Positions 51 through 25,485 of a stretch of DNA of 64,000 bases are shown piece by piece. Where the stretch lies: contig NC_035795.1 in the NCBI RefSeq assembly GCF_001653235.2, positions 3,045,001 to 3,109,000 on the forward strand, in the 5' to 3' direction. Source of the stretch: Pochonia chlamydosporia 170. Its lineage: Eukaryota; Ascomycota; Sordariomycetes; Hypocreales; Clavicipitaceae. The position numbers were made by a program, and so were the translations under genes. How positions within the stretch are numbered: the stretch's first letter is position 1; each line of letters begins with the position of its first letter. Under the pieces are notes generated by a model. The model ran no database searches. It saw nothing but the letters and a program-made list of their open reading frames with translations, and was not told the origin of the DNA.

Positions 51-920
51 TCAAACGAGCTGACCCCAGACAACAATTTCTTCAATCCTCGCACCCTCAT
101 TCTCAAGCTCCGCCTTCACCCGTCCCGGCAAGGCATCAAGCTGCTCAGCACTAAAGGAAGTTGCCACGCTTCTCGCAACGGCTGTCAGTGGTGCCACGGG
201 TCCTATAATGCCATTGGCACTGCGAGCACGCATCTCCGGTTTCGCCAGCTTCCCAATATCACACAGGATTCGTCTTTCCTGCACGTTCTTCAAGCCCGCC
301 TCTTGAAGCATCTGCTTCATCTCATTCGCGAAGTTACCCACGCCAATGGCTGTCCAAACTTCCGAGGTCATCTTAGCGAAGTCAGTCATCGCGGGTCCTA
401 GAGTGCCCTTTGGCGGCTGGAAGGCATTCATTTCCATGAGCTGAACCCAGCCGCCGGGTTTTACCATGGAAATGATGTTTTTCACAACCTCAATGGGTTT
501 GCCCGGAGCAGAGCCGGCGAGACTACCTCGTATGTGCACGAGGTCCAGCGAGTTCAAGAGATGCTCTGGCCATGGGTCCTTGAAAGAATGCTTGAAGTAT
601 GTGATGCCGTCTGGCGTCTCTGGGAAGAGCTCAGGCTCGATGTCACTGCCAAAGTACTCGTGTTGTACTGAGAGCGGACTGCGCACATCGCGGAGCCAGA
701 TGCCTTTTGACCATATTAGCGTGGTCTCGAAGGATGTCAAGGGTTACAAACCATCGGCGGTGCCGGAATCTAGTATTCTCTTTCCCGGCTCCTGGAGGTT
801 AATGGGAGCTAAGACGAGCTTGCCATCCATGGCATCCAGGAAAACAGCGTGGAGATCAGCAAGGCGCTGCAGCTCGGCCGTGTGGCCGGCTTTCTTGGTC
901 ATATTCATAAAGTTGTCCAT
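51..920 (-). CDS. SAM-dependent methyltransferase 1 (UMTA/LaeA-like, PsoC-type)
   Basis: Two exons, 920-752 and 703-51, around a 48-bp GT..AG intron (751-704), giving 273 residues. Seen: the SAM-binding motif ILDSGTADG (residues 49-57) is completed across the splice, followed by VKPGGWVQLMEM (about 137-148) and the family-typical C-terminus VVWGQ. This fungal class I methyltransferase family includes LaeA-like regulators and natural-product O-methyltransferases. The start is the first ATG, just upstream of the conserved region; a tail of about 45 residues before motif I is normal. It is divergent from the P450 at 1482 and shares the 921-1481 promoter with it. A second member of the same family lies at 17325-18293. 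In a pseurotin-like cluster this type of enzyme is PsoC. The family is clear; the substrate is inferred from context. Confidence 0.85.
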
Positions 921-1481
921 TTTAGTATAATATTGTGGTTTCGCTAGTATTTGACTCGCCTATCAACAAATGCGAAACTAAGAGAGGGTTTGCCGTGTAC
1001 ACATACTTATGTAAACTACACGACATGTCTCTGCACAGTAACAAATCTCGACAATACATCGTAACCCAGTCTGACTTCAAACGGAACTGGCTAGGTCTTG
1101 GCTTGGCAGACTGTTGAGTGCAATGTGCCGAAAGAGTGGCGCTCAAGGCTACCGAGGGCGGTCCGCTTACCAAAAATGGTGCGCATCGCCGAAGTGGACC
1201 GCGTGCCGAATTTACTCGCTGGCTGAATGTTTGATGCAGAGGCTATAACATACTTGGTTCTTCGGATCCTTGTGGGTTTATATGTAGTATTCTCCGAATT
1301 ATGTATTGCAATATGTGTGGAATTATCTTAACGTATGTATGTATTTACACGATACTGGTATTCAACCCGAGTTCTAGGTACGTTCCTCCATGTCCATACT
1401 AGAACCTGTAGCACGTAAATGCAGTGAAAGCGAAAAAATTGAACAATTAAACGAATTAGGTAGTATAATTTTCACACAATC
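921..1481. promoter_or_regulatory. Shared intergenic promoter of methyltransferase 1 and P450
   Basis: This 561-bp divergent intergenic region holds no credible gene; the short open frames here have no family features. It carries three copies of GCCGAA (1127-1132, 1188-1193, 1205-1210) and a CGG-T-CCG palindrome (1159-1165), which could be half-sites for a Zn2Cys6 regulator. Bases 1058-1105 also translate to a stretch resembling the end of the MetAP1 zinc finger (see findings). Confidence 0.4.
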
Positions 1482-3254
1482 ATGGCCGTGTTATCGCAAG
1501 TATGCTGGTTAGCATTTCTGGGAGTCCTACTTCATTACATCTCTGATGTTTTCCTGAAGCACCGGCGGATGAAAAGTGCCAAGATTCCACCAGGACCTAG
1601 AGGTACACACGTATTCATATTTTCAATGCTCTAATTACTGAATTATAGCTGATAACCTACTGATAGGTTGGCCTTTTTTTGGAAACGCCTTGGAACTGGC
1701 TTCATCCAATAGCAACACCATCACTGATATCTTTCGCAATTGGGCTCAGCAGCATGGTTCTGTGACGCAATTTAGCGTCATGGGGGCGAAACAAGTGGTT
1801 CTATCTGATGAGAAGATTGTGAAAGAGCTATTTGTCAAGAGGGGAAATAGGTATTCTGATCGAGGAGCCCCTCATGCAGTGGAATATATATCAATGAATC
1901 AAAACCCAGGTTTCAGACCCAAGGACGGTGAGTAATTTTGGCTGTTGGAAGGGGTTTTGTGGTTTTGTATGATCTATACTGATAATCGATAGAGGGCTGG
2001 CGTCGTCAGAGAAACTTGATGCACAGCGCGGTCTCCATCACCTCCATTAATAAATACCAAAAATTAATGGATAATGAAGCAATCATCACTGTTCATGCGT
2101 TGCATCAATCGCCGCTGTCATTTGACAAAGAGTTTCTACGGTACTCTTACTCCGTCCTCACCAGTTCGCTGCTTGGATTCTCAGTGCGCTCCGCCTCTGA
2201 CACCTATATTCAACAAAACGAAGAGTTCACTGCCGAAATCATGAAGTCTTTCCGTCCAGATTGCTTTCCCAGTAACGTGTTCTCATTTCTGAGAAAAATG
2301 CCCTTCTGGCTGGTCCCAAGTTTGAGAACAATGGAGAGACTTCGAAAAGAGTACGTTGCGCAAATGTGGTTGTTCAGGAGCAAGATCGAGAAAAGTGTCA
2401 GAGACGGTTCAGCAACGGAGTCTATCTATAAGCACTTCCTTTTGAACCGGGGTGATTACGCCGTTACGGACGAGGAATCTGTTCATACATTCCAAGGTAT
2501 GATAGACGGTGGGACGCGCTCTCCTCACAACAACTTGCTCACATTCCTATTCTTGATGATGGAGTATCCTGACTGGCAGAGGAGGCTTCAGGAGGAAGTA
2601 GACCAGGTCGTTGGAAAAGATAGGATGCCATGCCACGAGGATATTCCCAACCTACCTACAGTGAGAGCCATAGTGAAAGAGGGAGTCCGATACAGGAGCA
2701 TAGTGGCAGAAATGGGCATAACCCATTGCCTTAGTGAGGATGATGTTTATGAGGGCTACTTTTTTGAAAAAGGAACAGTGTTCCATGCGCCATTCGAGTG
2801 AGTCTTGGTTTTCAAAAATTGCCTCATTCCCATGTTCAATCCCGCTAATTCTGCTAGATCTATCCTCATGGATAAGGAAACATATCCGGACGGACTCCTG
2901 TTCAACCCTGCACGTTGGCTTGAACCCAGCTATCCAACCTTCAAGGAACCTTTAACTACTTACCCAAATTGCCACAATTTTCCAGCTTTTGGGTATGGTA
3001 GACGAGCTTGCCCAGGAGTTGAGTTTGCGGAACGCACCTTGGTCATCATAATTGCCAAATTGGGATGGGCAGTAAACATCCGGTGGCCTCGGGACGAATT
3101 TGGTAAAGAGCTTCGGGAGAAGCTTCGGTATGAGCCGGTGCCTGCCCCGAGACCTATGAATTTTGGCTGCAGCATCGAGGCTCGGGGCCCGGACCGGGTC
3201 AAGGTTGTTCAGAGGGCAGCTGAGAAATTGAATGAGGAATACCATTTGGCGTAA
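1482..3254 (+). CDS. Cytochrome P450 monooxygenase (microsomal, natural-product type)
   Basis: Four exons, 1482-1602, 1667-1927, 1993-2797 and 2858-3254, with introns of 64, 65 and 60 bp; 527 residues. Seen: an N-terminal membrane anchor (about residues 6-26), the proline hinge PPGPRG, the C-helix DEGWRRQRN, a degenerate I-helix (GMIDGGTRS), the K-helix ExxR as EGVR, the PERF-region ARW, and the heme loop FGYGRRACPG with the axial cysteine near residue 447. It has the normal length of a fungal class II P450 and resembles OrdA-like enzymes. All key residues are present, so it should be active. In the Aspergillus fumigatus supercluster the P450s are PsoD and FmaG; I cannot say which this matches. 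It is convergent with the hydrolase at 3827-5176. Confidence 0.92.
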
Positions 3255-3826: not shown

Positions 3827-5176
3827 CTAATGTTTTCTATCCCAAGATTCTATTGCAATTGATGCCACATCTCTACCACGCGACACGGCAATCTCATGCC
3901 CCCCCTTCAAAACTCTCACGTCAACAGACTCTCTACAGAGAAGCGCTTCAGCATCTTCTACCAACTCGTCCTTTACAACAATAGCATCACTCTCCGCAGT
4001 AATGAGGCAAATACGCCCACCCGGTAGACCCGGTGGTGCATTCGTTGTTCGTCGCCGCCGTAGTTCATCCGCAAGCACTCTCCAGGTTCTATCATGGCGT
4101 CTATAGACGAGAGAGCTACGCAGGGAGCTCAAGTACGAAGAGACAAATCCATCATTGTTCCTCAACTGCCATCGAACCACATCGCCGATTCTCACGCCCT
4201 GTCGATCAGCTGCGATAGGCACGTCGTCAAAGTCGACTTCAGCGTCCTTGACCTGTTCGGGGACGTCTGCACTCGGAGCGCCATTTCTCGGCTCCAAGCT
4301 GCTATGGAGGATCCTTAGGCGTAACCAGTCTGGTATTACGCCTGAGGAGTAGAGAAATTGGCTTCGGGGGCTTATGTGCGATGTACGGATTAGGCCTCCC
4401 GGGCAGATGAGGGTCACAGACCGAAGCATACTCGCGTGGTAGGCAGCGAATGCTACAGCCACTGATCCGCCGAGAGAAAATCCGACAATATGGAAGGCAG
4501 ACGATCCAGTCCAGGACAGCGACGAAGATGAGAGAACAAGCAGGATCTGAGTAGTGTAGAGCCGAGCGTCATGTTTTAAGTCATCTGGCGTATCTGAGTA
4601 GCCTCTGCCAAAGAAATCTGTCATAAAAATTGTAAGCAAAGATCATCCCATTCATAGAGTACTATATGAATTTGTGTCTTTCGGAATAGAACTTGGAATG
4701 ATGATTGTCATCCAACTGTGCTACCGGGGGATAATGCAAGACGCACCAAAAATCATGACTCTGTAGCCCTTTTTGACAAATTCTTTCGCCATATCGCCCA
4801 ATGCTATACACGGAGTGCTGAGACCGTGCATCATCAAGACTTTCTCCCCATTTTCAGGGCCCCATTCAAACACTTGAATCGTTCCATATATAGTGTTGAA
4901 CTGTCTTCCTCCAGGAAAGGCATCCATCGGGTACGGTAGCTCATCCTCCGTGGCCTTCGCATCCGCTGATCGTTGGCCTTTGCCTGCTTCCACACGAGTC
5001 CTAGCCCGCGTAATCGTCTGCTCTTCAGGAAGATGTTGCACATCGCTAAGAGTTGGTCGAATCTGTAAATATAGAGCGAGGGAGGCCGCTGCAGCGGTAA
5101 CTCCTAGCAGAGGCGCTTGCCTGATGGCCTGCCGAATTGCTAACAGTGGGTTTAGATCAAACATTCTGGAGAACAT
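3827..5176 (-). CDS. Alpha/beta hydrolase with N-terminal membrane segment
   Basis: Two exons, 5176-4747 and 4617-3827, with a 129-bp intron (4746-4618); 406 residues. The splice joins GYRVMIF to DFFGRGYSD, a typical strand and turn of the fold. Seen: a hydrophobic helix at about residues 22-40, an oxyanion-region HGLSTP, the nucleophile elbow GFSLGGS (Ser about 192) and a late GGHE (His about 384). An acid residue should lie between them; the D in TAESDAIV is a candidate. The normal Ser-His-Asp fold suggests a hydrolase or acyltransferase. The pseurotin and fumagillin clusters each carry genes of this superfamily (PsoB; FmaC), so a role in product release or transfer is plausible but inferred. 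It shares strand with the MetAP2 gene upstream. Confidence 0.85.
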
Positions 5177-5671: not shown

Positions 5672-7210
5672 TCAGTAATCTTCTCCACGACTAATAACCT
5701 CTTTCACCGTAGGCCTGAGCAGAATTGTCTGATGTACTTCTATTAATCGGGGATCTTCTGAGTCAATTAGGATTGTGACTTACATGCTCAAATTGGGCTG
5801 TGTATGACCCTTTCTGGTCAACCAGAGGGGGATAATCCTCGACAATGCCGGATTTGACTAGATGGTTTAGCTGCATAACTGTCAGCCACGAGAAAAAAAA
5901 CAACTCGAAGGTTACAGGAACACCATACACCGAGTAGATATTTCTCGTGCCCGATTCTATCCAAATATCGTCGGCAGAAGGGAAGAGTACTAAAATTCTT
6001 CTTAATGCTATACAGCAACGACTTTGCTGAAGAGAGATGCAAGTCCGCTTTAGGCGCATCACTGCGTAGAGCATAATGTGAGACTTCACCCTGATCGTAG
6101 ACCTTGCCTTTTCCAGTACTACCAAAGGGCTCAATGGCGAAGACATCACCTTCTTCCATCTTAGTGGTATCGTTCGTCTTCACAGAGGGAACGCTCTTTG
6201 AGCCGTGGATGCTGTAGTGCAAGATGCTATGCCCGGTTATATTCCTAATCGGCTTGATTGGGTAGGTCGTCCCATTGATTTCGCATTCGTAGCTTTCCAT
6301 GGCTTCCTGAATGTATCCACCAAGCTCGCCAAGTCGAACGTCAATTCCGGCTTCACGGACGCCAGTATTTGTCGCGTCCTTAACGGCTGCAAGGAGATTG
6401 TCGTACATCGGATCAAACGCCATTGTGAAGGCGCTATCAACGATGCGGCCATTTACATGCACGCCAATGTCAATCTTCATCACATTATTATGCTGAAGGA
6501 CAGTCTTGTTGCCGCTATTTGGGCTGAAGTGGGCAGCAATCTCATCAATGTTTAGGCCAGTTGGGAAAGCCATTCCAGCATGAATTGCATCGCCTTCGGA
6601 TAGGCCATCGTGTCCGACTAAACGACGAACGCTGTCCTCAATGCCATTAGCGATCTCGGTGAGCATCTGACCCGGCTTGATATTTTTCTGCGCCCACTGG
6701 CGGACCTGACGATGCGTCTCGGCTGCTTGACGATAATCAGAAAGAAAATCACTATTGAGCATATCTAGATGACGCTTCTCCTCGTTGGTAGTACGATATC
6801 GGTTCTCATTGGAGTATTCGACTTCTTCGCCTTTAGGGTATGTGTCGTTCGGAAACAATTGGGACACGAGAACTGACGGAGGTTCGGTCTGGGCAGTCGG
6901 AGCCTTCTTCATCTTCTTCTTCTTCTTGTTCTTCTTCTTATTCTTCTTTTTCGTGGCACCAGATTCACCAGCGGCAGCGGTAGATTCAGTGATGTTTTCG
7001 TCCGCGTCGTCCTCGGATTCTGCCCCAGAGTCTGCTGCATTAGCACCCCCGGATGTGGTCCTGTTGCCGCCAGCGGAACCATGGGCACTGTCAGATTCTT
7101 TGGCTGCCCATGCTCCTGTTAGCTAGTGTTCCTACTATCAAAAATGCGGAAGAGACGTATTACATACCGCTGAGCGCCTTGGGATTATTATCGGGGGCTC
7201 TGGCAGCCAT
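5672..7210 (-). CDS. Methionine aminopeptidase type 2
   Basis: Four exons, 7210-7168, 7115-5931, 5878-5784 and 5728-5672, with introns of 52, 52 and 55 bp; 459 residues. It removes the initiator methionine from nascent proteins in the cytosol. Seen: an acidic then lysine-rich N-terminal tail (about residues 45-85) as in eukaryotic MetAP2, then the pita-bread domain with metal ligands Asp230, Asp241, His310, Glu343 and Glu440. The pocket context AAHFSPNSG keeps the histidine (about 210) that matches the residue fumagillin alkylates in human MetAP2. Ala341 in FAIEPFG is also kept, the position where threonine gives ovalicin resistance in the human enzyme. It is divergent from a MetAP1 gene 383 bp away, inside a biosynthetic cluster. 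A self-resistance copy is likely but inferred. Confidence 0.93.
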
Positions 7211-7593
7211 CGTGTTTGCCTAGACCTTGCAATTTGGGATGATGGTGTGGACAAGAACGACGGGTGGCTGAGACCCCGCTCGCCGCTAAAATCTAGGATA
7301 GCTGCTGCCAACCTCAAAAAGGGAAGGTGCCCGAAGTGCTAATTCCGGCTAGCGGGGGTCTAGTAGCGATGCACCTATCGGGGCACCTCCATCAAATGGG
7401 GACATCGATTAACTGATAACATTGAACTTAAGCCATCGAGCCTTCATCCCACCAAGCTCCACCGTTCATCACTTGACTCGTTTTGCGGCGAGGTGAAGCT
7501 GCTTTTGAGCGTCGCGAGACCTGCTGACAATCTCTGGCCCTGACCACATTTGGAGTGTTCCACTGCAGCCGTCTTAGAACAGCGAAAGCCACC
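7211..7593. promoter_or_regulatory. Bidirectional promoter of the MetAP2/MetAP1 pair
   Basis: This 383-bp region separates the two start codons and must hold both promoters. It is rich in CGG/CCG triplets but has no clear TATA box. The layout suggests co-expression of the two aminopeptidases. Confidence 0.5.
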
Positions 7594-8996
7594 ATGGTCG
7601 AGTCATCCAAGATGAAGTGCCTCGGAGCAGACTGCGAAAATGATGCTGGAGCGTTGCAGTGCCCAACTTGCCTGAAGGTGGGCTTGAAAGACAGCTATTT
7701 TTGCACTCAAGATTGCTTCAAGAGAAATTGGGTCGGTCTAGGTGTCCTCTCCCCACCAGAGCTTAGCTGAACAATCTTATCCTGTAGAACCAACATAAGG
7801 CGGTACACAAGATAGCACAAGGCAAGACACAAAATGGTACCGTCCACAACATCATTCCCCCCTCCCCAAAGGTTGTCTCTAAATGCAATGCAGTGGCTGG
7901 ATTTTACAATCCTTTCCCATCTTATGCCTTCACTGGCTCCGTCCGACCTGTCTATCCGCTTTCTCCGATGCGAACCGTGCCCAAGTCCATACCGCACCCG
8001 GACTGGTCTGTGACTGGGATCCCCAAGGCTGAACGGCGCTTGAATAGGTCAAAAATCGACTTGCTAGACGCCAAAGGGCAGGAAGCAATGCGCAAGGTTT
8101 GTAGATTAGCCCGAGAAGTACTTGACATAGTCGCCGCAGAGCTCAAGCCAGGCATTACCACGGATTATCTCGACAAGGTCTGCCACAACGCCTGTGTAGA
8201 ACGGAAAGTAAGCGCGACTCCCTCCAAGATGAATCTGACTACATCTAACCTTGATAGTCGTATCCTTCTCCCTTGAATTACAATCACTTCCCTAAATCAT
8301 TGTGTACTTCTCCGAATGAAGTTGTTTGTCACGGAATACCCGATCAGCGAATCCTTCTGGATGGTGATATCCTGAATCTCGACATCTCACTATACCACGA
8401 GGGCTATCACGCCGATCTAAACGAAACGTATTATGTAGGGGATCGAGCCAAGGCGGACCCGGACTCGGTCAGAGTAGTGGAGACGACGCGGGAATGCTTA
8501 GACATGGCAATTGCGCTCGTCAAGCCCGGGACACCGATACGAGATTTTGGTGCCGTCATCGAGAAGCATGCCAAATCCAGAAACTGCACTGTAGTCGCGA
8601 CCTGGGGTGGCCATGGCATCAACACCGAGTTCCACCCCCCGCCGTGGATACCTCACTATGCTAAGAATAAGGCAGTTGGGGTGTGCAAACCCGGAATGAC
8701 CTTCACCATTGAGCCCATACTCGCGCTGGGCAAATCTCGGGAAGTGTACTGGCCAGATAACTGGACAAACGTCACTGTGGATGGTAAACGGACTGCTCAA
8801 TTTGGTGTGTACAGGTGGTCATTTTGCCAGGCGCCTATTCCCGAACACTAACAAATGTCTAGAGCACACCATGTTGGTCACTGAAACAGGCGTCGAGGTC
8901 TTGACGGCAAGAAAAGAAAATTCTCCAGGCGGCCCAATACCAATGCCGGCGACTCCAAGTGACACAGCAAAGACCAATGGCGCTACCCACGCATAG
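7594..8996 (+). CDS. Methionine aminopeptidase type 1 with N-terminal zinc finger
   Basis: Four exons, 7594-7731, 7788-8207, 8258-8804 and 8863-8996, with introns of 56, 50 and 58 bp; 412 residues. The start sits in ACCATGG. Seen: a MYND-like finger (cysteines at about residues 9-41, ending CFKRNWNQHK across intron 1), then the catalytic domain with Asp228, Asp239, His305 ([10 protein letters not shown]), Glu338 (TFTIEP) and Glu369 (AQFEHT). Intron 1 uses a weak donor (GTCGGT), chosen because it restores the finger sequence. The C-terminus runs about 30 residues past the catalytic fold and is Pro/Thr-rich. MetAP1 is naturally insensitive to fumagillin-type inhibitors, with Thr336 at the discriminating position. 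Next to MetAP2 in this cluster it looks like a bypass resistance gene, as in the A. fumigatus supercluster. Confidence 0.93.
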
Positions 8997-9947: not shown

Positions 9948-12253
9948 ATGGACCCGCCATTGCCCGTACGGTCGCATCTCCAAGATGAAATGCTACTAGA
10001 GAGCTTGAACAACCCAGAGGACTTCTGGGCTCGCCAAGCCGAGCACCTTTACTGGCACAAGAAGCCCGAAGCCACATTGCGAATGTCACAGAGAAAGCTG
10101 CAAACAGGCGAGTTTCATCCGACTTGGGAGTGGTTCTCTGGCGGCGAGATATCAACGTGCTATAACTGCCTTGACAGACATGTAGCTGCAGGCAACGGAG
10201 ACCGGGTAGCTATTTACTACGACAGTCCGGCTACAGACACCAAAGAGACCTATAGCTATAATAATCTCCTCAGCGAAGTTGAAACCCTAGCTGGGGCACT
10301 GAGGCAACAAAATGTCAGAAAGGGTGATGTGGTGATGCTGTATAGTACGTACACACTTGGGCCTTGAGACTAGTCGCCGCATCTGACTTGACTTACTCAA
10401 AATTTAGTGCCCATGATCCCAGCGGCTCTAATCGGAATGCTGGCAGTTAACCGTCTCGGGGCCATCCACGCCGTCGTATTTGGCGGCTTTGCAGCAAGTG
10501 CCCTGGCTCAACGCATCGACTCCTGCAAACCAGTGATTCTGCTGACTGCCTCGTGTGGCATCGTCGGGAACAGACCTCCCATTGCGTATCGACCTCTGGT
10601 GGAGGAGGCAATTAGCCTGTCGTCTCATAAACCGGGGCGTGTTGTGGTTTGGGAGCGAGAGCAATTACCATGGCGTACGAAATCCGTTGCATGTGGTGGC
10701 ACTCTATCTCGATGGCTGCAAAGACTTGGCCGTTTTGCAAGGTTGACCAGCGACAACTACATCTCATGGCAAGGCATGGTGAAGAGGGCAAAGGCGCGCG
10801 GTGTCAAGGCGGACTGTGTAGCAGTAAACAGCAATGATCCCATCTACATCATCCACACTTCTGGAACGACTGGAACTCCCAAGGGAGTACCGCGCGATGC
10901 GGGTGGCCACGCGGTGGGATTGCATTTGTCCATCAGCTACATCTTCAACATCCACCAAGGAGATGTCGCCTTTACAGCTTCAGATATTGGATGGGTGGTG
11001 GGACATTCCTACATCCTGTACGCACCGTTGCTTGCGGGAGCTTCCACCGTCTTATATGAAGGCAAGCCAGTTGGAACGCCTGATGCATCCGCCTTTTGGC
11101 GCGTGGTGGCAGAATACAAAGTCAACACAATGTTTACTGCGCCGACTGCACTTCGAGCCATTAAACGCGACGATCCTGACAACCATTTCCTCTCTAAAAT
11201 TGGCGAGGCCGGGGGCCTACGATCACTCAAAGCGCTCTTCCTTGCCGGCGAGCGTTCAGAGCCCAGTTTGATATCCATGTACCAAGGGCTCCTCGATAAA
11301 TATGGCGCACCCTCTTCCTCTCACGTCATCGACAACTGGTGGTCAACAGAAGCAGGATCACCTATAACGAGCAGAGTTCTCAACCCGCACGCCGCCCTAG
11401 ATCGTGACTCTAGCGTACGGAACTACAACCCTCTACGTATTAAACCTGGGAGTGCTGGCAAGCCAATGCCGGGATTCAACATTCGTGTCGTGGATGAGCA
11501 GGGTGATGAAGTACAAAGAGGCACAATGGGTAATATTGTCTTAGGGCTACCTCTGGCGCCGACGGCATTCCGTACACTTTGGGTAGACGAGGAGAGATTC
11601 TATCACAGCTACTTGAAACGATTTGGTGGCAAATTCATGGATACTGGAGACGCAGGGTGGATTGATGATGAGGGCTATGTTTATGTGATGAGTCGAAACG
11701 ATGATGTGCTAAACGTCAGCGCGTATCGACTATCAACTGGTATGCATTTGTTAAACATCTGGAACGAACAATTCCCTGCCTGCTACTAACTAACATCACA
11801 GGGTCCATCGAACAAGCCATCTCATCGCACCCACTTGTCGCAGAATGCTGTGTGGTCGGTGTTCCTGATGAACTCAAGGGCCAGCTCCCATTCGCATTCA
11901 TTACCCTTTCCACGGCGAGCCATCCCGAGTCCGCACTACCAGATGCCAGGATTTCACTTGAGATCCAGTCGCTTGTGCGTAAGCAAGTCGGTGCATTTGC
12001 GTCGCTAGGGGGCATCATCCAAGGGAAGGGCATGATTCCCAAGACACGATCTGGGAAGACGTTGCGACGAGTACTCCGAGAACTGGTTGAGAATGCTGTT
12101 TACGGAGAATTCGCCAAGGTGGTTATAGTGCCTAGTACAGTGGAGGACGCGGTCGCGGTGGACGTAGCCCGAGTCAAGATCAAGGAGTATTTCGAGAAGA
12201 GCGGCAGCAAGCACAGGCCGATCGAGTCAAGGGAAACGAGAAGGACGTCGTAA
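9948..12253 (+). CDS. Short-chain acyl-CoA synthetase (PrpE/ACSS3 type)
   Basis: Three exons, 9948-10344, 10408-11739 and 11802-12253, with introns of 63 and 62 bp; 726 residues, the usual size of acetyl/propionyl-CoA synthetases. It activates a short carboxylic acid to its CoA thioester through an acyl-AMP. Seen: the AMP-binding loop TSGTTGTPKGV, then GGHAVGLH, SDIGWVVGHSYI and VLYEGKPVGTPDA, which favour the propionyl/ACSS3 branch; MDTGDAGW and the C-terminal lysine motif IPKTRSGKTLRR. The A5 motif reads DNWWSTEAGSP instead of the usual WWQTETG, and the hinge reads RNDDVLNVSAYRL. An acetate-CoA ligase gene also sits in the A. fumigatus supercluster, so this may supply starter or extender units, or may be a passenger. 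Confidence 0.9.
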
Positions 12254-12934: not shown

Positions 12935-15750
12935 CTAGTACCCATTAGTCGCCGCATCCACCGCGAGGGCAGTCGATACCAATAAGGCACTATGGCTTTC
13001 AGGTTCCGGGAGATCACAGGCCGCAAGATCAACGCCAGAGAACCCAGCACTTTTGAGATGTTGACTCCATTGCTCAGGAGACTGCAACGGACTTTCCGTT
13101 CTGCCGTCACCGACACCAGCCCACCAGCCCGAAAGCGAGCCAAAAGCCATGTTGAAGTAAGGAGTCAACCGAGTTAGCTCTACAAGGCCGAGCTTACCAC
13201 CAGGTTTCAGCAGCTTGTGAATGGTTCCCAGTGAACGGGTCAGAGACTTCGTGGCATGGACAACATTCGCGGCAATGATCAAATCGTAGGCATGCTCCTC
13301 AAATCCCTGTTTCGCTGCATCGTTTTCGACATTGAGAGTTTGGAACTTGAGCACACGCTCCCACTTCTTCAAAGTGGTTTGGCTGGTCTTGAAGAAACCG
13401 GGAGAGATGTCGGTGTACATGTACTCGGCGCAGAAGGATTCCCCGTTGGGGCTGCATGCTTGGAGCACTTTGAGCGTTGTGCCTCCCGTGCCAGCGCCAA
13501 TCTCCAAGATTCTCAGGTCCTTTTTCTTGCCGCATAGAAATTTTGCATAATCCGCCATGTATTGGTTGGGTCGCGCCCCTTCATCGGAATGGTACATTCG
13601 GAACAGCAGGTCGTCTCTCAGGATATGGGCCAGCGGATGAGTCTGGCCGGTCAGCATTCGAACAAGCTCCGGCCCAATCCGGTTGATGGCTTCCCCTTCG
13701 ATACCAAGTCTGGACGTCAGCTGGTCCATGTCAGTCTTGGTGCTTGGCCCCTGTTGAATGAGAACCTGTCCCGATTCTGACTTTACAAAATCTTGTAGGA
13801 CTTGCCACCAGTAGGCTCGGTGATCTTGCTTCACAGCCAGTCCACGATCGTGGATCTCTTTAACAGCCCAGTCGATGTAGCGAGCGCAGGCAGCAGAGCC
13901 AAGGTTGAACTTTTCTGCTGCAGTCATGCCAACTTGGTCGGATTGTAGTGGCATAACGGCCGATTCGAGCATCTCAGCCGTAATAGATGACGTGATTGAC
14001 GAGCAAGTCTTACCTGGGGCATCTTGGTCCGTCTTGTTGGTGACTGAGAGAGGAGTGAACTCCATGCTCTCCCATTTCGTGTCGAGTTCCTTGTTGAGCC
14101 ACAAAAGCCAATTCTGGACGCCACCAAAATAGAACATAATGTTGGCAGGCTTCCCAGGTATATTTGTGCCAACGAACCAGGAGCGGTTTTCCTTGGCGGG
14201 TTGCGATATAAACACCGAGTTCCAAAGTCCTTCATGATGGTCAGACCATGCATGCATAGCATTCTCCTTCACGTTTATCACGGCCAAGTTGTTTTCCTCC
14301 ATGTGACGAATAGTTTTGCCAATCCAGTTTACTGATAGCTCTAGTGGAACTGGCAAGTTGCCCGCAGGCATGTGAGGGCCGCAAACTATGAACATATTGG
14401 GGAACCCAGAGACAAGGACTCCAGCAAATGTTCCAAGTCTCTCAGTGTTCCAATATTCCTTCAATACTTTTCCTTGGCTGCCTTTGATGTCAATCTGGTT
14501 CATGGCGCCAGTACCGGCATCGAATCCAAGAGCGAAAATGATCATGTCGAACTCGTGTTCGGCTCCGGAATGAGTACGGACTCCATTCTCGAAGAGATCA
14601 ATCTCGTCACGGCTTATATCAACCAGGTTAACGTTGGGCCGGTTGAATGCCTCGTAATAAAAGTGCCCTGAGGGCGGGCGCCTGGCCCCAAAGGGGTATT
14701 TCGGACACAGGAGTTCCGCCTTGTCTGGATCTTGGACAATGGCTCGAATCTTTTGACGGATGAATTCCGAGACTTGCTCATTAGATTCCGGGTCCATGAA
14801 TGCATCATCAAAGGTTTCGAGCTGAAAGTTGAAACAGCCACGTTCCCAACCATGGTCAAGGATTTGTCTGACCTTGTCAGCGTCACCTACACTCTTGACA
14901 GTTCTCCCTGATGCCTTGCATGCCGCACCAGCAATGTTCATTGTTGCAAGCTCCCAAGTGGCTTCATGGTTCCTCTTAATGTCGACAACCTGATACTCAT
15001 CTATGGAATGATTTCGCCCTGGAAGCACGTAATTTGGCGTGCGTTGAAATACTGTCACGTCTTTGGCAATGGGGGCAAGTTTGGGGAGGAGGTGGATTCC
15101 CGTGGAACCTGTGCCAATTATGGCGATACGCTTACCATTGAAATCAACCTCGTGTGCTGGCCAGTTGGAAGCCTGATACCACTCGCCAGTGTAAGAGCTC
15201 AGCCCAGGGAATGGCGGGTTCTTTGGAATTGACAGAATCCCGGTAGCTGGTAGGAAGTAGCGACAAGTCGTGGACAGTCCATTCTCAGTCGTGATGGTCC
15301 AGATATTCTCGGCGTCGCTGTAACTTGCGGCCGCGATTCGGGTACCGAATTCGATGTACTTGCGTAGGTTGTAGCGGTCTTTTTTTATATATATTAGTAA
15401 ATGAAAAACGGCCTTGTCTAGTTTGAAAGCATGGAGGATGACCAGTGAGCGGAGGAAGACTGACCAGCGATACGACCCAAGTACCGTTGAATCTCTTCCT
15501 GAGTCGGGTAACGTTCATGGTACTCCCATTCCTCCAACAGCTCCGGTGCAAAATTTAATATGTATACCCATGCTTCGCCATCGGTGCGTGACCCGGGATA
15601 GCGATTCCAGTACCACGTACCCCCAACATCGGATGCAGCATCAAAGCACTTCACCGTCAGGCCAAGCTGATCAAGTTCCCAGAGAGACCGAATACCACTG
15701 AAGCCTGCACCGATGACGACAGCGTCGTAATCCGCAACTCTCCTCGACAT
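12935..15750 (-). CDS. Fused flavin monooxygenase/C-methyltransferase (PsoF-like)
   Basis: Two exons, 15750-15465 and 15378-12935, with an 86-bp intron (15464-15379); 909 residues. Residues 1 to about 540 are a Baeyer-Villiger-type flavoprotein: FAD motif GAGFSG (14-19), [15 protein letters not shown], and NADPH motif GTGSTG (184-189). Residues from about 560 are a class I methyltransferase like the CMeT domain of PKSs, with EIGAGTGG near 721 and VVHATKS and [12 protein letters not shown] further on. The Baeyer-Villiger fingerprint FxGxxxHxxxWP reads Y158-x-G-xxx-Q164-xxx-WP, losing Phe and His. This two-domain fusion is diagnostic of PsoF, which in pseurotin biosynthesis acts as trans C-methyltransferase on the PKS-NRPS intermediate and as an epoxidase. 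By analogy it needs a PKS-NRPS partner, which is not in the window. Confidence 0.9.
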
Positions 15751-17324: not shown

Positions 17325-18293
17325 TTATTTCGCAGGCTTCTGGCCCCAAACTACAGAAATGGGCCAGCTTCCTCCGTATTCTATCAGCTCTATCTCCAGA
17401 CGTTCCAAGAAAGTGCTTGCTTCATCGTCAGACATAGACTGCAAACCACCGGGGAGTCCTGCAAATGATCTTTAGTATCGGACAATAGCCAGTAGATGAA
17501 TGAAAAAATCCATACCCATGTTTGCCCCAAGCAGACTAGCGGCTGAGTCCAAGGTGGACTTAATTGCTGTTGCCCGGATATTCGGATCAGGCACTTTGGC
17601 GCCCAGAGTTCCCGGAGCCTGCATCGTTCCCACGCGTTGGAAGCCAGCGGCCATAATATGCCCTTCCAAGACTGCCGCGTCTGCCAAGTTCCGGGGAGCT
17701 CCAATCTTTATGTGCAGCTCGTTTATCAGCTCGACGAACTGGTGCACAGCAGGACCATCGTCTTCGCCAACCGTGCTCTGCATCTCGACGAGTTGAATCC
17801 ATCCGCCAGGCTTGACCAGATTACAGAGTCCTAATACCGCTTCGCGTCCTTTAGTCGCCGTAGCGGCCAAGACAAAACGCTGATGCACCACATCGAATGT
17901 GTCAAGCCATGAATCTGGGAATGGCCCCATAACGTCTTGTACTCGAAGCGCTATCCCCTTGGGCGGCGGATCCGGAAATCGTTCGTCGGTGATGTCGAAC
18001 CCATTCATCGTGCAGGTCTCAGGTCGTGTAAGTGTCTTTCGAAACTCAGTAAGCCAGTAGCCTGTAATTTGTATCAGAGGAAGCTAGATATGTTTAGTCT
18101 GCGCTGTAGTGGGCTGACCATCAGAAGTGCCTGAATCAAGTATCTTGAGGTTGGGCCGAGTAACATCGAAAGGTGCTAGCAAGAGACTCCCCCCCATAGC
18201 CAACTTGACCACATGATGGTTTATCTGAAGGCGCTCATTCTCACCCTCTGAGGCGGCAGGTTGAGGAGTGTTTTCGTTATCTGCTACGGCCAT
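17325..18293 (-). CDS. SAM-dependent methyltransferase 2 (UMTA/LaeA-like, PsoC-type)
   Basis: Three exons, 18293-18119, 18061-17516 and 17458-17325, with two 57-bp introns; 284 residues. Seen: motif [10 protein letters not shown] (51-59) completed across intron 1, [12 protein letters not shown] (about 158), and a C-terminus ending VVWGQKPAK, the family norm. It is a paralogue of the gene at 51-920, sharing motif I, the KPGGW block and the tail, with an extra 3' intron. The fungal family methylates oxygen or nitrogen of natural products. In pseurotin-like clusters PsoC does a late O-methylation, and one of the two copies here may be its counterpart. It is convergent with the membrane-protein gene and downstream of the GST-like gene on the same strand. 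Confidence 0.87.
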
Positions 18294-19030: not shown

Positions 19031-20033
19031 CTATGATTTAGGTTCTTGAACATGATCATCCTGGGTAGCAGAGGTAGCAGAAACAGCGGCATCGCCTGGG
19101 CCAGGATCGAGTGGCGCTGTCTTCTCCGGGGCAGTATTGGTCAGTTTAGGCTCCTCAAGGAACTCAAACTTGTCAGTCACGGCTGCATAGATGGGTTGAT
19201 GGATAATGGTCTTGTACCAACGAGACACATTGGGGTTCGCTTCTCGCCAGGCCTTCCCGTAGAAGAACTGGAAGCCGAGGGCAATAATCCCAGCACAGAA
19301 AATGTCGGCAAGAGTAACAGATTCGCCAACGAGAAATGAGTTGGTTTGTAGGTGCTCCTCAACAACATCAATGGCCGCCTGGGCCATCATCTCATATTTC
19401 TCAACGGACTCCTTGTTATAAGGGATGATGCCTATAAGAGCAAGATACTCTTCGACGATAGGCATAATAATCTCAGAGTTAAAGAAGGACATCCATTTGA
19501 CTATGTCAGCGTACTCCTTCTTAGAATTTCCGAGCAGAGTGGTCTCTTCGTTCTGAGAGGTGACTAAAATGACATTAGCCTTGGTCTAATGGACTAATAT
19601 ATCAACAATGACCCAAGAGCCAGGCGGAGCGTTGGGAGGCAGGGCACATCTATAGATGATACATATATTTATATCGGGCCATCCGCATAACCTGAGATAT
19701 TGCAGACATCTTGCTAAAGGGGGATTCAAGGACAATGACTACTGAGGGGGTTGGACGCACTGTATATGGCAATAGCAATGCACTCAAAGAGCTTGAAGCC
19801 GTCTTCTCCAATGAAAGCAGGAACTTTGCCTAGCTTGCTAACCTTGAGGTGCTCAGGAGTCCGAGGTTCTTCGCAAATTTTGAGTTCGAGATTATTCGCT
19901 TTTGCGACCGCCTTGATCGCGATGGTACGGGGATGGTCACCCTGAAGTGGAATTATTACACCAGTGAAGTCAAAGGAGTGGAGGGATTTAATAGCGTACA
20001 TACAGGAAAAGTGTATAGAGTGCCAAAAGCCAT
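19031..20033 (-). CDS. Glutathione S-transferase, EF1B-gamma-like (PsoE-type)
   Basis: Three exons, 20033-20004, 19941-19761 and 19563-19031, with introns of 62 and 197 bp; 247 residues. The first exon codes only ten residues (MAFGTLYTFP) and joins GDHPRTIAIKAVAKAN, the typical start of EF1B-gamma-type GSTs; this fixes the start. The thioredoxin-like N-domain contains GKVPAFIGEDGFKLFECIAI, the glutathione-binding region, and the C-domain contains the conserved VGESVTLADIF. A Pro/Ala/Asp-rich tail of about 30 residues follows and is not part of the fold. There is no EF1G C-terminal domain, so this is not a translation factor subunit. PsoE in pseurotin biosynthesis is a GST that isomerises an olefin, so an analogous role is plausible here. 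Confidence 0.87.
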
Positions 20034-20572: not shown

Positions 20573-21952
20573 ATGGGTAGCTATACAGCAAATCTAGTCG
20601 AAACCCTCGACGCAGTCGATGCATCGACTTTGGATGGAGATGATGCCTCGCGGCTACAATTGGCCATGGCGGCCCGCAAACTTTTTCATAAACTAGAGAC
20701 GAAGGAAGAGAAGACTATACGTCTTGCCATCGAAGAACCTGTTGTGTTCTCTGCTATCCAGGCTCTCATTGACGTTGGTCTCTGGGAAGACTGGACTGGT
20801 GCTGGTGGAGGCGAGAAGACTATCGAGGACCTTGCCACAATAACCAAGAAGGATATTGATCCGGAATTACTGCGTAGGTGTTCTACTGTACAGCAAGTAT
20901 ATTCACTGACACAACTCTCAGGCCACCTCCTACGACTCCTAGCTACGAACCACGTTGTCCTGGAAGCCGGGGAAGATCGCTACGCGCCGACCGCATTTTC
21001 GCTCTCCATGGGTGACAAGAGTACCCTCGTTGCGCCAGCTCTTCGCATACGGTACGCATGTCATCCTTTCTAAATTATTTAAAGCCGAGTGAAGTGAATT
21101 GACCATCACGCTGCAGAACCGACCACATCGCCCAGTGTGCCCATCACTTCCCCGAGTTCTTGGCTAATACCAACTACCGCAAGCCTCTAGACGACAATGC
21201 CAGTTGCTACATTGATACGTTCCCTGAGAAGAAAAACTTTTGGGAAAGATGCAAGGCAAACCCCATGCATCAAGAGAGCTTCTCTTCATTCATGCTGTTA
21301 TGGGGCAAGCATAAAAGACCGTGGCCACAGTTCTACGACACCAAAGCGCTGCTCGAGGGCGCTGACTTGAGCGATGGCAGCGCATTCATCGTAGATATCG
21401 GCGGACACCACGGTGTTGACCTCTTACGTGTGCTCGATAAGCATCCCGACGTGCCTGCAGGGTCCCTGGTGCTCGAGGACTTGCCGGAGGTTATCACTTC
21501 CGTGAGTCTTGCCACGGACAAGATCAAGGTTATAAAGCACAGCTTCTTTGAGCCGCAGCCGGTTAAAGGTTAGTTTCTCGCCTTCAGCGCCCATGTTGAG
21601 GCTTTATTTTCACCGACCTGACAAATTGAGGGAATGTGAAGGCAGCCGCGCCTATTACCTGCATGCCGTCCTACACGACTGGTCCGACAAGGTGTCAATC
21701 GACATCCTGAAGAACGTTGCGGCGGCCATGAAGCCCGGCTACTCTAAGGTGCTGATTCATGATATCGTCCTGCCAGCAACAGGAACTACCTGCTACCAAG
21801 CTGCGTTGGATTGCCTGGTGATGCAGGCCTCGGCCAACGAAAGAACCGAGGCTGTGTGGAATAAGGTGCTCGCGGAGGCGGGCCTTAAGCTCCTCAAGTT
21901 ATGGCCAGATGGCCGAGGGTATGAGAGCCTTATTGAAGCAGAGCTGGCATAG
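20573..21952 (+). CDS. O-methyltransferase, plant-COMT-like (FmaD-type)
   Basis: Four exons, 20573-20873, 20922-21051, 21117-21568 and 21642-21952, with introns of 48, 65 and 73 bp; 397 residues. An N-terminal winged-helix dimerisation region (about residues 40-140) precedes the Rossmann domain. Seen: [10 protein letters not shown] (about 236-245; the third Gly of the usual DIGGG is His), the general base His near 306 in HAVLHDWSD, and [15 protein letters not shown]. This is the normal size and order of fungal O-methyltransferases such as FmaD, which methylates an oxygen in fumagillin biosynthesis. Intron 1 is 48 bp with no in-frame stop, so an unspliced form would simply carry 16 extra residues. 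It is divergent from the GST-like gene. Confidence 0.9.
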
Positions 21953-23066: not shown

Positions 23067-24056
23067 TTAATTATCTTTGCCAAGGACATAGCGAATCGTC
23101 TCCCTGATAGTATCCTCCTCTGTAATCCCACTCGCACGCCAACCCAGCGCTCGCAACCGATCAGCTCTAGATCGAGAACTTGAACCCCAGAACTTTGGTC
23201 CCCATTCCCAAATCTTCGCAACAGCGCCCTCATCAAGACTGTCAACATCAGTATCAGAAACATACCCCTGCAAGTGAAGCTCCTGACCAACAATCTTGGC
23301 AAATTTTGTGAACGAATCCTCTCCCGCTTCAACAAAGTAATATCCATCCCGACCCCAATCCACCCTACTTTCCGTGCTTAACGCCTCCTCCACTAACAGG
23401 AGCAACGCAGACGATGCGTCGCTGACGTGGCAATAACTCGATACGTTTCTCCCGGCACCTACTACAAATACTTTCCCCTGGGACCGTGCCCCCCGTAGAT
23501 ACGGCTCAATGATCTTTGACTGCGGAGTGATGTGTCCTCTACCTTTTCCGTACATGCGAGGCAGCGACACAATAGCGACTTTGGTGTGTGAATGCTCCGC
23601 TTTCGCTATGATATCTTGTTCTATCGCTGCGTGAAGCCGATCGCGTGGCAGACTCAGTAGCTCGTCCTTTTGAGCAGCGTCACTAAAGACCTTTGGATCG
23701 AGGTCCCCAGCAGGGATGGATGGATCAATGAGAGATGCTATGCCAGAAACGTGCACGTACGTAGCGCCTGGATGCTGGGCGACGCCGTCAAGTAACGCGA
23801 ACGACATGGCTTCGTCATCTGTATTGGCGATTTGGACAACCACATCCGCTTCTTTTCCTTCAGAAATCAGAAGTTCGCGCAGGCTGCCCGTGGTGAAAAC
23901 ACACTTGACATTTGGAAACTGAGAGTTGAGCAGCGCAGCCTGTTGCTCAGAGCGAACAAGAGCCCGGACTTGATGCTCGGGATGCTGTTGCTGCAAGTGC
24001 GCAAGAAAATCGCCACCAACATATCCCGCCGCTCCTGTAATAAATATGGTTGGCAT
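23067..24056 (-). CDS. NAD(P)-dependent epimerase/reductase (atypical SDR)
   Basis: A single exon of 329 residues. Seen: the N-terminal nucleotide-binding motif TGAAGYVGGDF (GxxGxxG), ALVRSE after beta-2, a diagnostic VHVSGIA segment, and PRMYGKGRG, where the Tyr and Lys lie close together as in YGxGRG-type extended SDRs. The C-terminal half contains the substrate region with VEAGED. The fold is clear; the reaction (epimerase, ketoreductase or imine reductase) is not. It is divergent from the enoyl-reductase-like gene with a 308-bp shared promoter, so the two are probably co-regulated and may act together. Whether the pair belongs to the cluster or marks its edge is open. Confidence 0.85.
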   Translation of the reverse strand: MPTIFITGAAGYVGGDFLAHLQQQHPEHQVRALVRSEQQAALLNSQFPNVKCVFTTGSLRELLISEGKEADVVVQIANTDDEAMSFALLDGVAQHPGATYVHVSGIASLIDPSIPAGDLDPKVFSDAAQKDELLSLPRDRLHAAIEQDIIAKAEHSHTKVAIVSLPRMYGKGRGHITPQSKIIEPYLRGARSQGKVFVVGAGRNVSSYCHVSDASSALLLLVEEALSTESRVDWGRDGYYFVEAGEDSFTKFAKIVGQELHLQGYVSDTDVDSLDEGAVAKIWEWGPKFWGSSSRSRADRLRALGWRASGITEEDTIRETIRYVLGKDN

Positions 24057-24364
24057 TTTGAGACAGCTTGTGATGTTTCTCTCAGTGGCAAGTCGGGGTG
24101 TAAAAAGTCAAGTACCGGCCATCCTGCCTTTATCCTTTGCAATTTTGTGGCTGAAATATATCATTCAGCCGGTGGGATATATACCTCAATATTGGCCTAA
24201 ACACCAATAGGAAAGATAACGCGAGAAGCATGTGCAAACGAAATACGTCTGCCGTCTCATCCGTCTCATCGCGGGGTCATAACGCATAAGAAATATTGAC
24301 ACAAATTCTTCCGTGTCCCGTTCCTCAACACTTCAACCGTCATTTATCAGGCTTCGTTTACGAA
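24057..24364. promoter_or_regulatory. Bidirectional promoter of the reductase pair
   Basis: This 308-bp divergent spacer contains ATATATACC (about 24177-24185), a possible TATA element, and a perfect 9-bp tandem duplication of CCGTCTCAT (24252-24269) about 100 bp before the dehydrogenase ATG. Confidence 0.4.
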
Positions 24365-25485
24365 ATGAAAGCAATTCGCATCAAGGCCGCTGGAACGGCT
24401 GAAGTCCAAACGGGCGTTCCGGTCCCCAAACTCCGCGACGACTACATCCTGATCAAAACGGAGGCGGTTGCGCTCAATCCCACGGACTGGAAGCACATTG
24501 ACTTTCTTGCTGGTCCTGGGGCGAGAGTCGGCTGCGATTACAGCGGTATAGTGGAGGAAGTTGGTTCCAAAGTGCAGAATGGGATTAAGGTTGGGGATAG
24601 GGTGGCGGGAATGATTCATGGGAGTGAGTTTTCACACACTATATAGGACGATGTGCTGATGTGGTTGAAGGTAATCCTTCGAATCATGAGGACGGGTCGT
24701 TTGCAGAATACGTCGTTGCCAAAGGAGCGCTGCAGATGCGAATCCCGGATACTTTATCCTTTGAAGATGCTGCGACCCTTGGAGCCGGCATCATAACAAT
24801 GGGACAAAGTTTATATCAATCTCTGGGCCTTCCACTCCCGAACAATCCTTCAAAAGAGAACATTCCCGTTCTGATCTACGGAGGAAGTACCGCGACCGGC
24901 ACGCTGGCTATCCAATTCGCAAAGTTGTAAGTCAATTCCTTCTGCGAGCCTCTTCACCACTAACTGAGCAGGTCTGGTCTCCAAGTCATCGTCACATGCT
25001 CCCCTCGCAACGAGAAACTCGTCCGCGATCTAGGCGCAGATTTTGTATTCGACTACAAGTCCCCAACATGCGCAGCGGACATTCGCTCCGCAACCAACAA
25101 TCGTCTCGCTCACGCGTTCGACACGATTGCATCGAACGACTCTGCGCAGATATGTTGCAGTGCTATTGGTCCCCAAGGCGGCAGGTATACGTCTCTTGAA
25201 CCCATTGAGAAGCTTCCCCGTGATGATGTCACCAAGCTTAATACCATGGCTTTCACTGCCGTGGGCGAGGCTTTCGAGATTGCGGGCTTCCAGGTCCCAG
25301 CGAAGGAGGAGGATTATACGTTTGCTGTCATCTTTACGAGATTGGCGCAGGATTTACTCGCGCAACAGAAATTTAAGCCTCATCCGGTGAGTGTGCAGGA
25401 GGGGGGGTTGGATAGTGTGCTTGATGGTTTGCAGAGGATGCGGGAGGGGAGGGTGTCTGGTGTGAAGTTGGTGTATCCTATTTAG
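24365..25485 (+). CDS. Zinc-independent alcohol dehydrogenase/trans-acting enoyl reductase-like protein
   Basis: Three exons, 24365-24623, 24671-24926 and 24972-25485, with introns of 47 and 45 bp; 342 residues. The start at MKAIRIKAAG is chosen because the family begins there; an in-frame frame extends 23 codons further upstream. Seen: the GroES-like N-domain with NPTDWKHIDF, GARVGCDYSGIVEEVG and KVGDRVAGM, then the nucleotide-binding domain with YGGSTATGTLAIQFAKL. No structural or catalytic zinc cysteines are present. This is the ToxD/LovC-like family, whose members include trans enoyl reductases that serve polyketide synthases lacking an ER domain. No PKS is in the window, so that role is inferred. 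It is divergent from the SDR gene. Confidence 0.87.

What the first reader, a model, noticed from the sequence alone, without database searches (positions are those of the whole stretch)
51..25485. Fumagillin/pseurotin-supercluster-like tailoring and resistance genes
Seen: within 25 kb lie a PsoF-type flavin monooxygenase/methyltransferase fusion, two PsoC-type methyltransferases, a PsoE-type GST, a FmaD-type O-methyltransferase, a P450, an alpha/beta hydrolase, an acyl-CoA ligase, and both types of methionine aminopeptidase. Known: this combination is the signature of the intertwined fumagillin/pseurotin supercluster of Aspergillus fumigatus, and I recall related loci being reported in Metarhizium. 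Inference: this is a related cluster, with a different gene order and extra genes (second methyltransferase, SDR, trans enoyl reductase, four-helix membrane protein) that could make a different product. The PKS, PKS-NRPS, terpene cyclase and Zn2Cys6 regulator are not here and should lie to the left of base 1.
Basis: partly seen in the sequence, partly recalled or inferred. Interest (0 to 1): 0.85.

Follow-up and report, generated by a model that had tools for sequence, protein, structure and literature searches.

The report
Pochonia pseurotin and ovalicin gene cluster
This stretch is the right half of a fungal gene cluster of a known type, already worked out in a related insect fungus, that very probably makes pseurotin and an ovalicin-like compound; the new points are that it sits in the nematode-egg fungus Pochonia chlamydosporia and that one of its genes probably supplies the unusual starter molecule for pseurotin.

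Summary
The genome matches a published assembly exactly in size and scaffold number: Pochonia chlamydosporia strain 170. Bases 51-21952 are the right half of a ~52 kb cluster. To the left lie a PsoA-type PKS-NRPS ending about 870 bases before base 1, a Zn2Cys6 gene and a UbiA-type cyclase about 30 kb away. No FmaB-type PKS is near, so pseurotin plus an ovalicin-type compound is expected, not fumagillin. Genes match 19 of 21 rows of the M. anisopliae table in order; work on M. robertsii tied these to pseurotin A and mer-f3. So the order is not new. Differences: no ustilaginoidin cluster next door, an extra hydrolase, an SDR and a trans-ER-like gene at the edge. The 'acetate-CoA ligase' looks more like propionate-CoA ligases and groups with nine homologues found on contigs of the same length as PsoF-bearing ones; I infer that it supplies pseurotin's propionyl starter. 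New member of a known kind. Side lead: an NRPS locus beside a third MetAP2.

The parts
51..920 (-). SAM methyltransferase, PsoC-like by position (2 exons)
   Evidence: PF13489 23.4 bits, below cut-off; next to the PKS-NRPS as in M. anisopliae; start
1700..3254 (+). Cytochrome P450 (PsoD-like by position); 5' end not resolved
   Evidence: PF00067 114.6 bits; reading frames
3827..5176 (-). alpha/beta hydrolase 2, an extra gene against the M. anisopliae table
   Evidence: PF00561 36 bits; absent from the table seen; coordinates
5760..7050 (-). Type II methionine aminopeptidase (candidate self-resistance target copy)
   Evidence: TIGR00501 285 bits, over cut-off; His231 and Ala362 kept (human numbering, alignment); terminal exon with AQFEH present; 73% identical to the C7 paralogue
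7594..8996 (+). Type I methionine aminopeptidase (candidate self-resistance copy)
   Evidence: TIGR00500 201 bits, over cut-off; 137 of 182 residues identical to the own paralogue on C1, with differences at the YCGHGI motif
9948..12253 (+). Propionate-CoA-ligase-like AMP-forming acyl-CoA ligase
   Evidence: PrpE models 376/336 bits against acetate-CoA ligase 309/307; best PDB chain 5gxd, 385 bits, against acetyl-CoA synthetases 226; tree
12935..15750 (-). PsoF-type FMO/C-methyltransferase fusion
   Evidence: PDB 6kjg PsoF 521 bits; 95.1% identical to M. anisopliae P0001 over 814 aa
16681..17208 (+). small protein of 175 aa, at the position of hypothetical MANI_018962
   Evidence: no Pfam match; position
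17472..18293 (-). second methyltransferase (weak match)
   Evidence: PF13489 E=0.011; position of MANI_018945 methyltransferase
19031..20001 (-). PsoE-type glutathione S-transferase
   Evidence: PDB 5f8b 235 bits; PF00043; start
20573..21952 (+). O-methyltransferase, FmaD-like by position and family
   Evidence: PF00891 44 bits; position of MANI_018919
23067..24056 (-). extended SDR (epimerase type), membership of the cluster uncertain
   Evidence: PF01370 48 bits
24365..25485 (+). trans-enoyl-reductase-like dehydrogenase, membership uncertain
   Evidence: PF08240 43 bits and PF13602 32 bits on separate exons

Best explanation
Bases 51-21952, with about 31 kb to their left, are the Pochonia chlamydosporia counterpart of the intertwined pseurotin/ovalicin-type cluster of Metarhizium. 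Shown: the gene set, its order and the lack of a fumagillin-type PKS nearby. Inferred from work on the corresponding M. robertsii cluster: the PsoA-type PKS-NRPS with PsoF, PsoC-, PsoD- and PsoE-like enzymes makes pseurotin; the UbiA-type cyclase, P450, two PhyH dioxygenases and the O-methyltransferase make an ovalicin-type MetAP2 inhibitor; and the Zn2Cys6 gene switches both on. Inferred from a suggestion made for A. fumigatus: the MetAP1 and MetAP2 copies protect the producer. Inferred here: the AMP-forming ligase is a duplicated propionyl-CoA synthetase that supplies pseurotin's propionyl starter unit.
For: Two large exons match A. fumigatus PsoA (369-2162 with 2305 bits; 2432-4003 with 2138 bits), with KS, AT, DH, KR, condensation, AMP-binding, carrier and reductase domains. 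UbiA hits on two exons at C6:3014763-3015481. P450 and two PhyH. Zn2Cys6 motif at -18733..-18644. EthD-like gene, just below cut-off, as in A. fumigatus Afu8g00430 (PMC7020470). No other KS near and no ABM match on the contig. Same order as the M. anisopliae table. M. robertsii: deleting mPsoA abolished pseurotins; mFmaA sub-cluster tied to mer-f3 (PMC9600275 abstract and passages). Pseurotin isolated from P. chlamydosporia var. catenulata (PMC4824826 passage). Ligase: PrpE models score best; 75% identical to the genome's own PrpE-like gene against 41% (best exon) to the AcsA-like one; 9 contig lengths are shared by PsoF-type and ligase hits (tables), twice with locus tags three apart; all 9 fall with the window ligase in one 22-row branch (SH-aLRT 100) apart from the own C7 gene. 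Propionate as pseurotin starter: PMC3252867 and PMC10401856 passages.
Against: No product was measured in strain 170, and I found no paper linking ovalicin to Pochonia. PsoC, PsoD, FmaD, FmaG and UpmR identities rest on family and position; I had no reference sequences for them. The terpene cyclase match is modest (51.5 bits, and 27.7 bits below cut-off, by exon). The methyltransferase domain of the PKS-NRPS is below cut-off. The ligase's NCBIfam scores are far below the curated cut-offs (one exon was scored), and the own C7 gene separates PrpE from AcsA by only about 50 bits. Equal contig lengths are a proxy for linkage; 3 of the 9 contigs exceed 5 Mb, and one PsoF row (P0053) is a fragment. 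A ligase annotated the same way sits inside the fma part of A. fumigatus (Afu8g00500), which would also fit a terpene role.
Confidence: 0.88

Rival explanations
1. It is a complete fumagillin/pseurotin supercluster as in A. fumigatus and makes fumagillin.
For: Shared TC, P450, PhyH, O-methyltransferase, PsoF, two MetAPs and a Zn2Cys6 gene.
Against: No second ketosynthase match on C6 between about 2.06 Mb and the contig end and no ABM-family match on C6, so the pentaene chain and its FmaE-type step are missing, as reported for M. robertsii. FmaC was not tested apart from the two alpha/beta hydrolases.
Confidence: 0.03
2. Only pseurotin is made; the ovalicin half is silent or broken in this species.
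For: Pseurotin, but no ovalicin, turned up for Pochonia in the passages I saw; a search for Pochonia with fumagillin or ovalicin showed no linking paper among the 15 listed of 69 hits.
Against: Terpenoid-side gene families of the M. anisopliae order are present with open exons; full gene models were not built. A P. chlamydosporia extract was among potent anti-Giardia extracts (84% inhibition), and fumagillin acts there at nanomolar level, though the active compound of that extract was not named in the passages.
Confidence: 0.12
3. The SDR and trans-ER-like genes at 23067-25485 belong to the cluster and change the product, for example to a more reduced pseurotin analogue.
For: They directly follow the O-methyltransferase and are of types common in polyketide clusters; the PKS-NRPS exons scanned show no enoyl-reductase match of their own.
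Against: Not in the published 21-row M. anisopliae table. Pseurotin keeps its double bonds, so no trans-ER is needed (recalled). No co-regulation data.
Confidence: 0.15
4. The ligase makes acetyl-CoA for farnesyl pyrophosphate, as suggested (unproven) in the review PMC7020470.
For: It is annotated acetate-CoA ligase and sits in the fma part in A. fumigatus.
Against: PrpE-type scores and a PrpE-type paralogue; its presence on contigs of PsoF length; a propionyl starter needs exactly this activity.
Confidence: 0.25

Closest known systems
Metarhizium anisopliae MaNRPS-PKS2 cluster / M. robertsii mPsoA-mFmaA sub-clusters with UpmR
   Same: Same gene types in the same order from terpene cyclase to O-methyltransferase (19 table rows matched, 3 of them hypothetical and by position only). 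No FmaB-type PKS and no ABM gene near. PsoF 95.1% (to M. anisopliae), MetAP2 98.1% and ligase 94.2% (to M. brunneum) identical.
   Different: No ustilaginoidin-type PKS beside it; one extra alpha/beta hydrolase; SDR and trans-ER-like gene at the right edge; host is Pochonia.
Aspergillus fumigatus fumagillin/pseurotin supercluster (fma/pso)
   Same: PsoA, PsoF and PsoE types by sequence; UbiA-type cyclase, PhyH, EthD-like, ligase, MetAP1 and MetAP2, Zn2Cys6 gene by family.
   Different: Lacks the HR-PKS FmaB and an ABM-family FmaE; other gene order than in the table; PsoF about 61% identical.
Tolypocladium ophioglossoides pseurotin-related cluster
   Same: PsoF 81.6% and ligase 83.7% identical, both on contigs of 364,733 bases.
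   Different: Neighbouring clusters differ according to PMC5088523 (passage).

Membership tests
Pseurotin (pso) cluster | PsoA-type PKS-NRPS with terminal reductase | tested here: met
Pseurotin (pso) cluster | PsoF FMO/C-methyltransferase fusion | tested here: met
Pseurotin (pso) cluster | PsoE-type GST, PsoC methyltransferase, PsoD P450 nearby | tested here: inconclusive
   GST met; MT and P450 by family and position only
Pseurotin (pso) cluster | Makes pseurotin | not testable with these tools
   reported for P. chlamydosporia var. catenulata, not for strain 170
Fumagillin (fma) cluster, A. fumigatus type | HR-PKS FmaB for the pentaene chain | tested here: not met
   one KS locus in the region, that of the PKS-NRPS
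Fumagillin (fma) cluster, A. fumigatus type | ABM monooxygenase FmaE | tested here: not met
   3 ABM matches in the genome, none on contig C6
Fumagillin (fma) cluster, A. fumigatus type | Acyltransferase FmaC and keto-reductase af490 | not tested
   no reference sequences at hand; listed
Ovalicin-type (Metarhizium) cluster | UbiA-type terpene cyclase, P450, PhyH, O-methyltransferase without FmaB | tested here: met
Ovalicin-type (Metarhizium) cluster | FapR/UpmR-type Zn2Cys6 regulator | tested here: inconclusive
   Zn2Cys6 motif at the expected place; no UpmR sequence to compare with
Metarhizium three-part supercluster | Ustilaginoidin NR-PKS cluster adjacent | tested here: not met
   no other KS and no SAT match within about 970 kb left or to the contig end; other NR-PKS loci elsewhere in the genome were not identified
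MetAP-based self-resistance | Target-enzyme copies in the cluster beside copies elsewhere | tested here: met
MetAP-based self-resistance | Copies insensitive to ovalicin | not testable with these tools
   Ala362 is kept; the recalled A362T route does not apply

The most novel reading that the evidence does not exclude
The gene called acetate-CoA ligase is a dedicated propionyl-CoA synthetase that arose by duplication of the fungal PrpE-like gene. It travels with PsoF through Hypocreales, Xylariales, Eurotiomycetes and Leotiomycetes (class names recalled) as a hidden core gene of pseurotin clusters and sets their rare propionyl starter unit.
Probability: 0.6. Interest if true: 0.45.

Novelty: new member of a known kind. 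Interest (0 to 1): 0.35.

Why it matters
It places an apparently complete pseurotin/ovalicin-type cluster in a fungus used against plant-parasitic nematodes, without the ustilaginoidin part. The divergence from Metarhizium in the cluster ligase (94.2%) about equals that of the housekeeping ligase (93.8%), so the cluster may well predate the Pochonia-Metarhizium split and have been lost in the Metarhizium species that lack it, rather than being gained recently by generalists. It also turns an unassigned cluster gene into a testable starter-unit enzyme.

Tried and rejected
Fumagillin itself: rejected, as no FmaB-type PKS or ABM match is near. Metarhizium as the host: my first assumption, dropped after housekeeping-ligase identity of only 93.8%, a halogenase between an NR-PKS and a further PKS on C6 (the pattern of radicicol-type clusters, recalled), and the exact assembly match to P. 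chlamydosporia 170. MetAP2 resistance by A362T (recalled; a search gave no paper on it): not met, Ala is kept. Pocket changes as a mark of cluster MetAP2s: weak. Pro at position 365 occurs in 11 of 120 listed homologues (1 unreadable), scattered over a tree of 42 rows, and Phe at 232 in 46 of 120 (7 unreadable). The cluster MetAP2 is in fact closer to other fungi's MetAP2 (median 84%) than the C7 copy is (median 76%, homologues chosen by likeness to the window copy), so which copy is the ancestral one is open. A tandem repeat suspected near 16.1-16.4 kb: the scan of 15500-17000 gave only a 26-base array at 16030. Ligase tree: 40 of 120 listed homologues, picked by me, plus three own genes; quick method; the AcsA-like outgroup branch is absurdly long.
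Full report
What the window is. G000 has 44,215,803 bases in 49 contigs and the window is C6:3045001-3109000. Table 1 of PMC5773674 (passages seen) gives for the final assembly of Pochonia chlamydosporia strain 170 exactly 49 scaffolds and 44,215,803 bp. In support, the genome's one Trp-halogenase match (C6:2043456) lies between an NR-PKS (SAT at C6:2040478; KS at C6:2039341) and another KS at C6:2056515, as in radicicol-type clusters (recalled), and strain PC-170 has a resorcylic-lactone cluster with an nrPKS and an hrPKS (PMC11024724 passages). In this report, negative numbers are bases left of base 1 of the window.

Gene content, left part (outside the window, loci L014-L017, L034). UbiA-type cyclase at -30237..-29519(-): 51.5 bits and, below cut-off, 27.7 bits on two exons; the other two UbiA matches in the genome are strong single ones elsewhere. 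P450 at -28291..-26586(+) and two PhyH dioxygenases at -23606..-22791 and -21667..-20972(+). A 382-aa frame at -26396..-25251(-) with a Zn2Cys6 match below cut-off, whose first half lies in the preceding exon (my reading): possibly a second regulator. A clear Zn2Cys6 motif at -18733..-18644(+) close before an open frame at -18500..-17172. An EthD-like frame at -16681..-16343(-), just below cut-off. An alpha/beta hydrolase at -15760..-14375(-). The PKS-NRPS from -13258 to -871(+): KS, AT, DH, part of KR, and a methyltransferase match below cut-off; condensation, AMP-binding, carrier and terminal reductase domains; no enoyl-reductase match in these exons. It aligns with PsoA 369-2162 (2305 bits) and 2432-4003 (2138 bits).

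Gene content, window part. See the parts list. The order is methyltransferase, P450, alpha/beta hydrolase, MetAP2, MetAP1, ligase, PsoF, 175-aa protein, methyltransferase, GST, O-methyltransferase, then SDR and trans-ER-like gene. From 26.3 kb on, the frames I scanned look unrelated: SET domain, alpha/beta hydrolase (PF07859), kinesin, aspartyl protease, ankyrin, sugar transporter, squalene/phytoene synthase (1 of the 3 frames scanned there and 5 of 10 had no match).

Comparison with the published Metarhizium cluster. The 21-row table of PMC5088523 (passages) reads, from its third row: integral membrane protein, P450, hypothetical, two phytanoyl-CoA dioxygenases, C6 factor, hypothetical, alpha/beta hydrolase, PKS-NRPS, methyltransferase, P450, two methionine aminopeptidases, acetate-CoA ligase, steroid monooxygenase, hypothetical, methyltransferase, GST, O-methyltransferase. 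All 19 of these rows have a counterpart here in the same order (taking row order as gene order); three hypothetical rows are matched by position alone, and the two further hypothetical rows at the start were not compared. One gene here, the alpha/beta hydrolase at 3827-5176, has no row. In M. robertsii (PMC9600275, abstract and passages) deleting mPsoA abolished pseurotins, the mFmaA part was tied to mer-f3 (12-hydroxy-ovalicin), FmaB, FmaC and FmaE are lacking, and a ustilaginoidin cluster in the same supercluster is co-regulated. Here the nearest other ketosynthase match on C6 is about 970 kb to the left, with none to the contig end on the right, and no SAT match is nearer, so the ustilaginoidin part is absent from this neighbourhood. 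Whether one of the NR-PKS loci elsewhere in the genome is its counterpart was not tested.

Age of the cluster. Identity to Metarhizium is 94.2% for the cluster ligase, 95.1% for PsoF and 98.1% for the cluster MetAP2; the housekeeping ligase is 93.8% identical to M. guizhouense (the compared proteins are cluster representatives). Similar divergence of cluster and housekeeping genes speaks for descent from the common ancestor (or a transfer no later than the split), and loss in those basal specialist Metarhizium that PMC9600275 reports as lacking the supercluster. This rests on one housekeeping gene.

The ligase. NCBIfam scores are 376 and 336 bits for propionate-CoA ligase models and 309 and 307 for acetate-CoA ligase models (one exon, all below curated cut-offs). 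The best PDB match is 5gxd (385 bits; recalled as a PrpE) against 226 bits for acetyl-CoA synthetases. The genome's own closest relative (C7:1681431, 75%) also leans to PrpE (371 against 320 bits) while the AcsA-like gene (C1, 41% for its best exon) leans clearly the other way (606 against 365). Reading the tables side by side, nine longest-contig lengths occur both among PsoF-type rows (P0001-P0053) and among the 120 listed ligases; in Venustampulla (BP5553_09828 and _09831) and Monosporascus (DL770_006497 and _006494) the locus tags are three apart. Three of the nine contigs exceed 5 Mb, where shared length says little. In a tree of 43 rows all nine fall with the window's ligase in a 22-row branch (SH-aLRT 100) that excludes the own C7 gene; that branch also holds rows whose linkage I could not see, and has two main parts, one with Metarhizium, Tolypocladium and some Aspergillus, one with an A. 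fumigatus protein and Penicillium. PMC9600275 reports two Aspergillus lineages for the regulator too. I did not check that the A. fumigatus row is Afu8g00500. Since propionate is the recorded starter of pseurotin A (PMC3252867 and PMC10401856, passages), a propionyl-CoA supply is the simplest role. PMC7020470 instead proposes, as unproven, a supply for farnesyl pyrophosphate (section 9 read). A search for pseurotin with propionyl-CoA and PKS-NRPS found one paper, whose passages do not make this link; of four papers with pseurotin, propionate and starter I opened passages of three, and none of those passages names the ligase.

Self-resistance. Both MetAP copies align with solved MetAPs over the catalytic region and their last exons are present. 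PMC7020470 suggests such copies may protect A. fumigatus. The cluster MetAP2 keeps His231 and Ala362; it carries Pro at 365, seen in 11 of 120 listed homologues. The cluster MetAP1 differs from its paralogue in 45 of 182 residues, 16 of them among the 41 positions around the GHGI motif, where an even spread would give about 10. Whether this gives resistance is not shown. In M. anisopliae the two MetAP genes differ in induction: one rises about fourfold, the other shows no difference.

Literature on Pochonia. PMC4824826 (passage) lists pseurotin among compounds of P. chlamydosporia var. catenulata. Searches for Pochonia with pseurotin (8 papers) and Pochonia with fumagillin or ovalicin (69 papers with two of three terms, 15 listed) showed me no paper that reports this cluster or an ovalicin-type compound in Pochonia. 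Of these I opened four at the word Pochonia (PMC5088523, PMC4824826, PMC10269678, PMC8307166) and PMC10401856 for other terms; four of the eight papers were not opened. Subscription papers are not held.

Verdict. The locus is real and its core is known chemistry. It is a new member of a known kind, of modest interest, with one useful inference (the starter-unit ligase) and one side lead (third MetAP2 beside an NRPS).

Noticed in passing
G000:C2:6165652-6196377 (loci L032, L033, L036, L037): A third MetAP2-like gene (57% identical to the window copy over 310 aa) stands between an aconitase-family gene, a Zn2Cys6 regulator, an alpha/beta hydrolase, a multi-domain NRPS, ABC-transporter frames and a beta-lactamase-family gene: a candidate cluster for an NRPS-made MetAP2 inhibitor, or a chance neighbour.
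   Followed up: partly
-26396..-25251 (L015:3604-4749, minus strand): A possible second Zn2Cys6 regulator gene within the cluster, at the place of hypothetical MANI_018955; the match is below cut-off and the cysteine motif seems split by an intron.
   Followed up: partly
G000:C6:2039341-2057273: NR-PKS, flavin halogenase and another PKS close together: looks like the radicicol/monocillin cluster of this species.
   Followed up: no
window 55611-56702: A squalene/phytoene synthase frame (PF00494, 152 bits) about 30 kb right of the cluster; not checked whether it is the housekeeping gene.
   Followed up: no
window 5821-6909: The cluster MetAP2 is closer to other fungi's MetAP2 than the genome's own C7 copy is (median 84% against 76% over 120 homologues); which copy is ancestral is unexplained.
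   Followed up: partly
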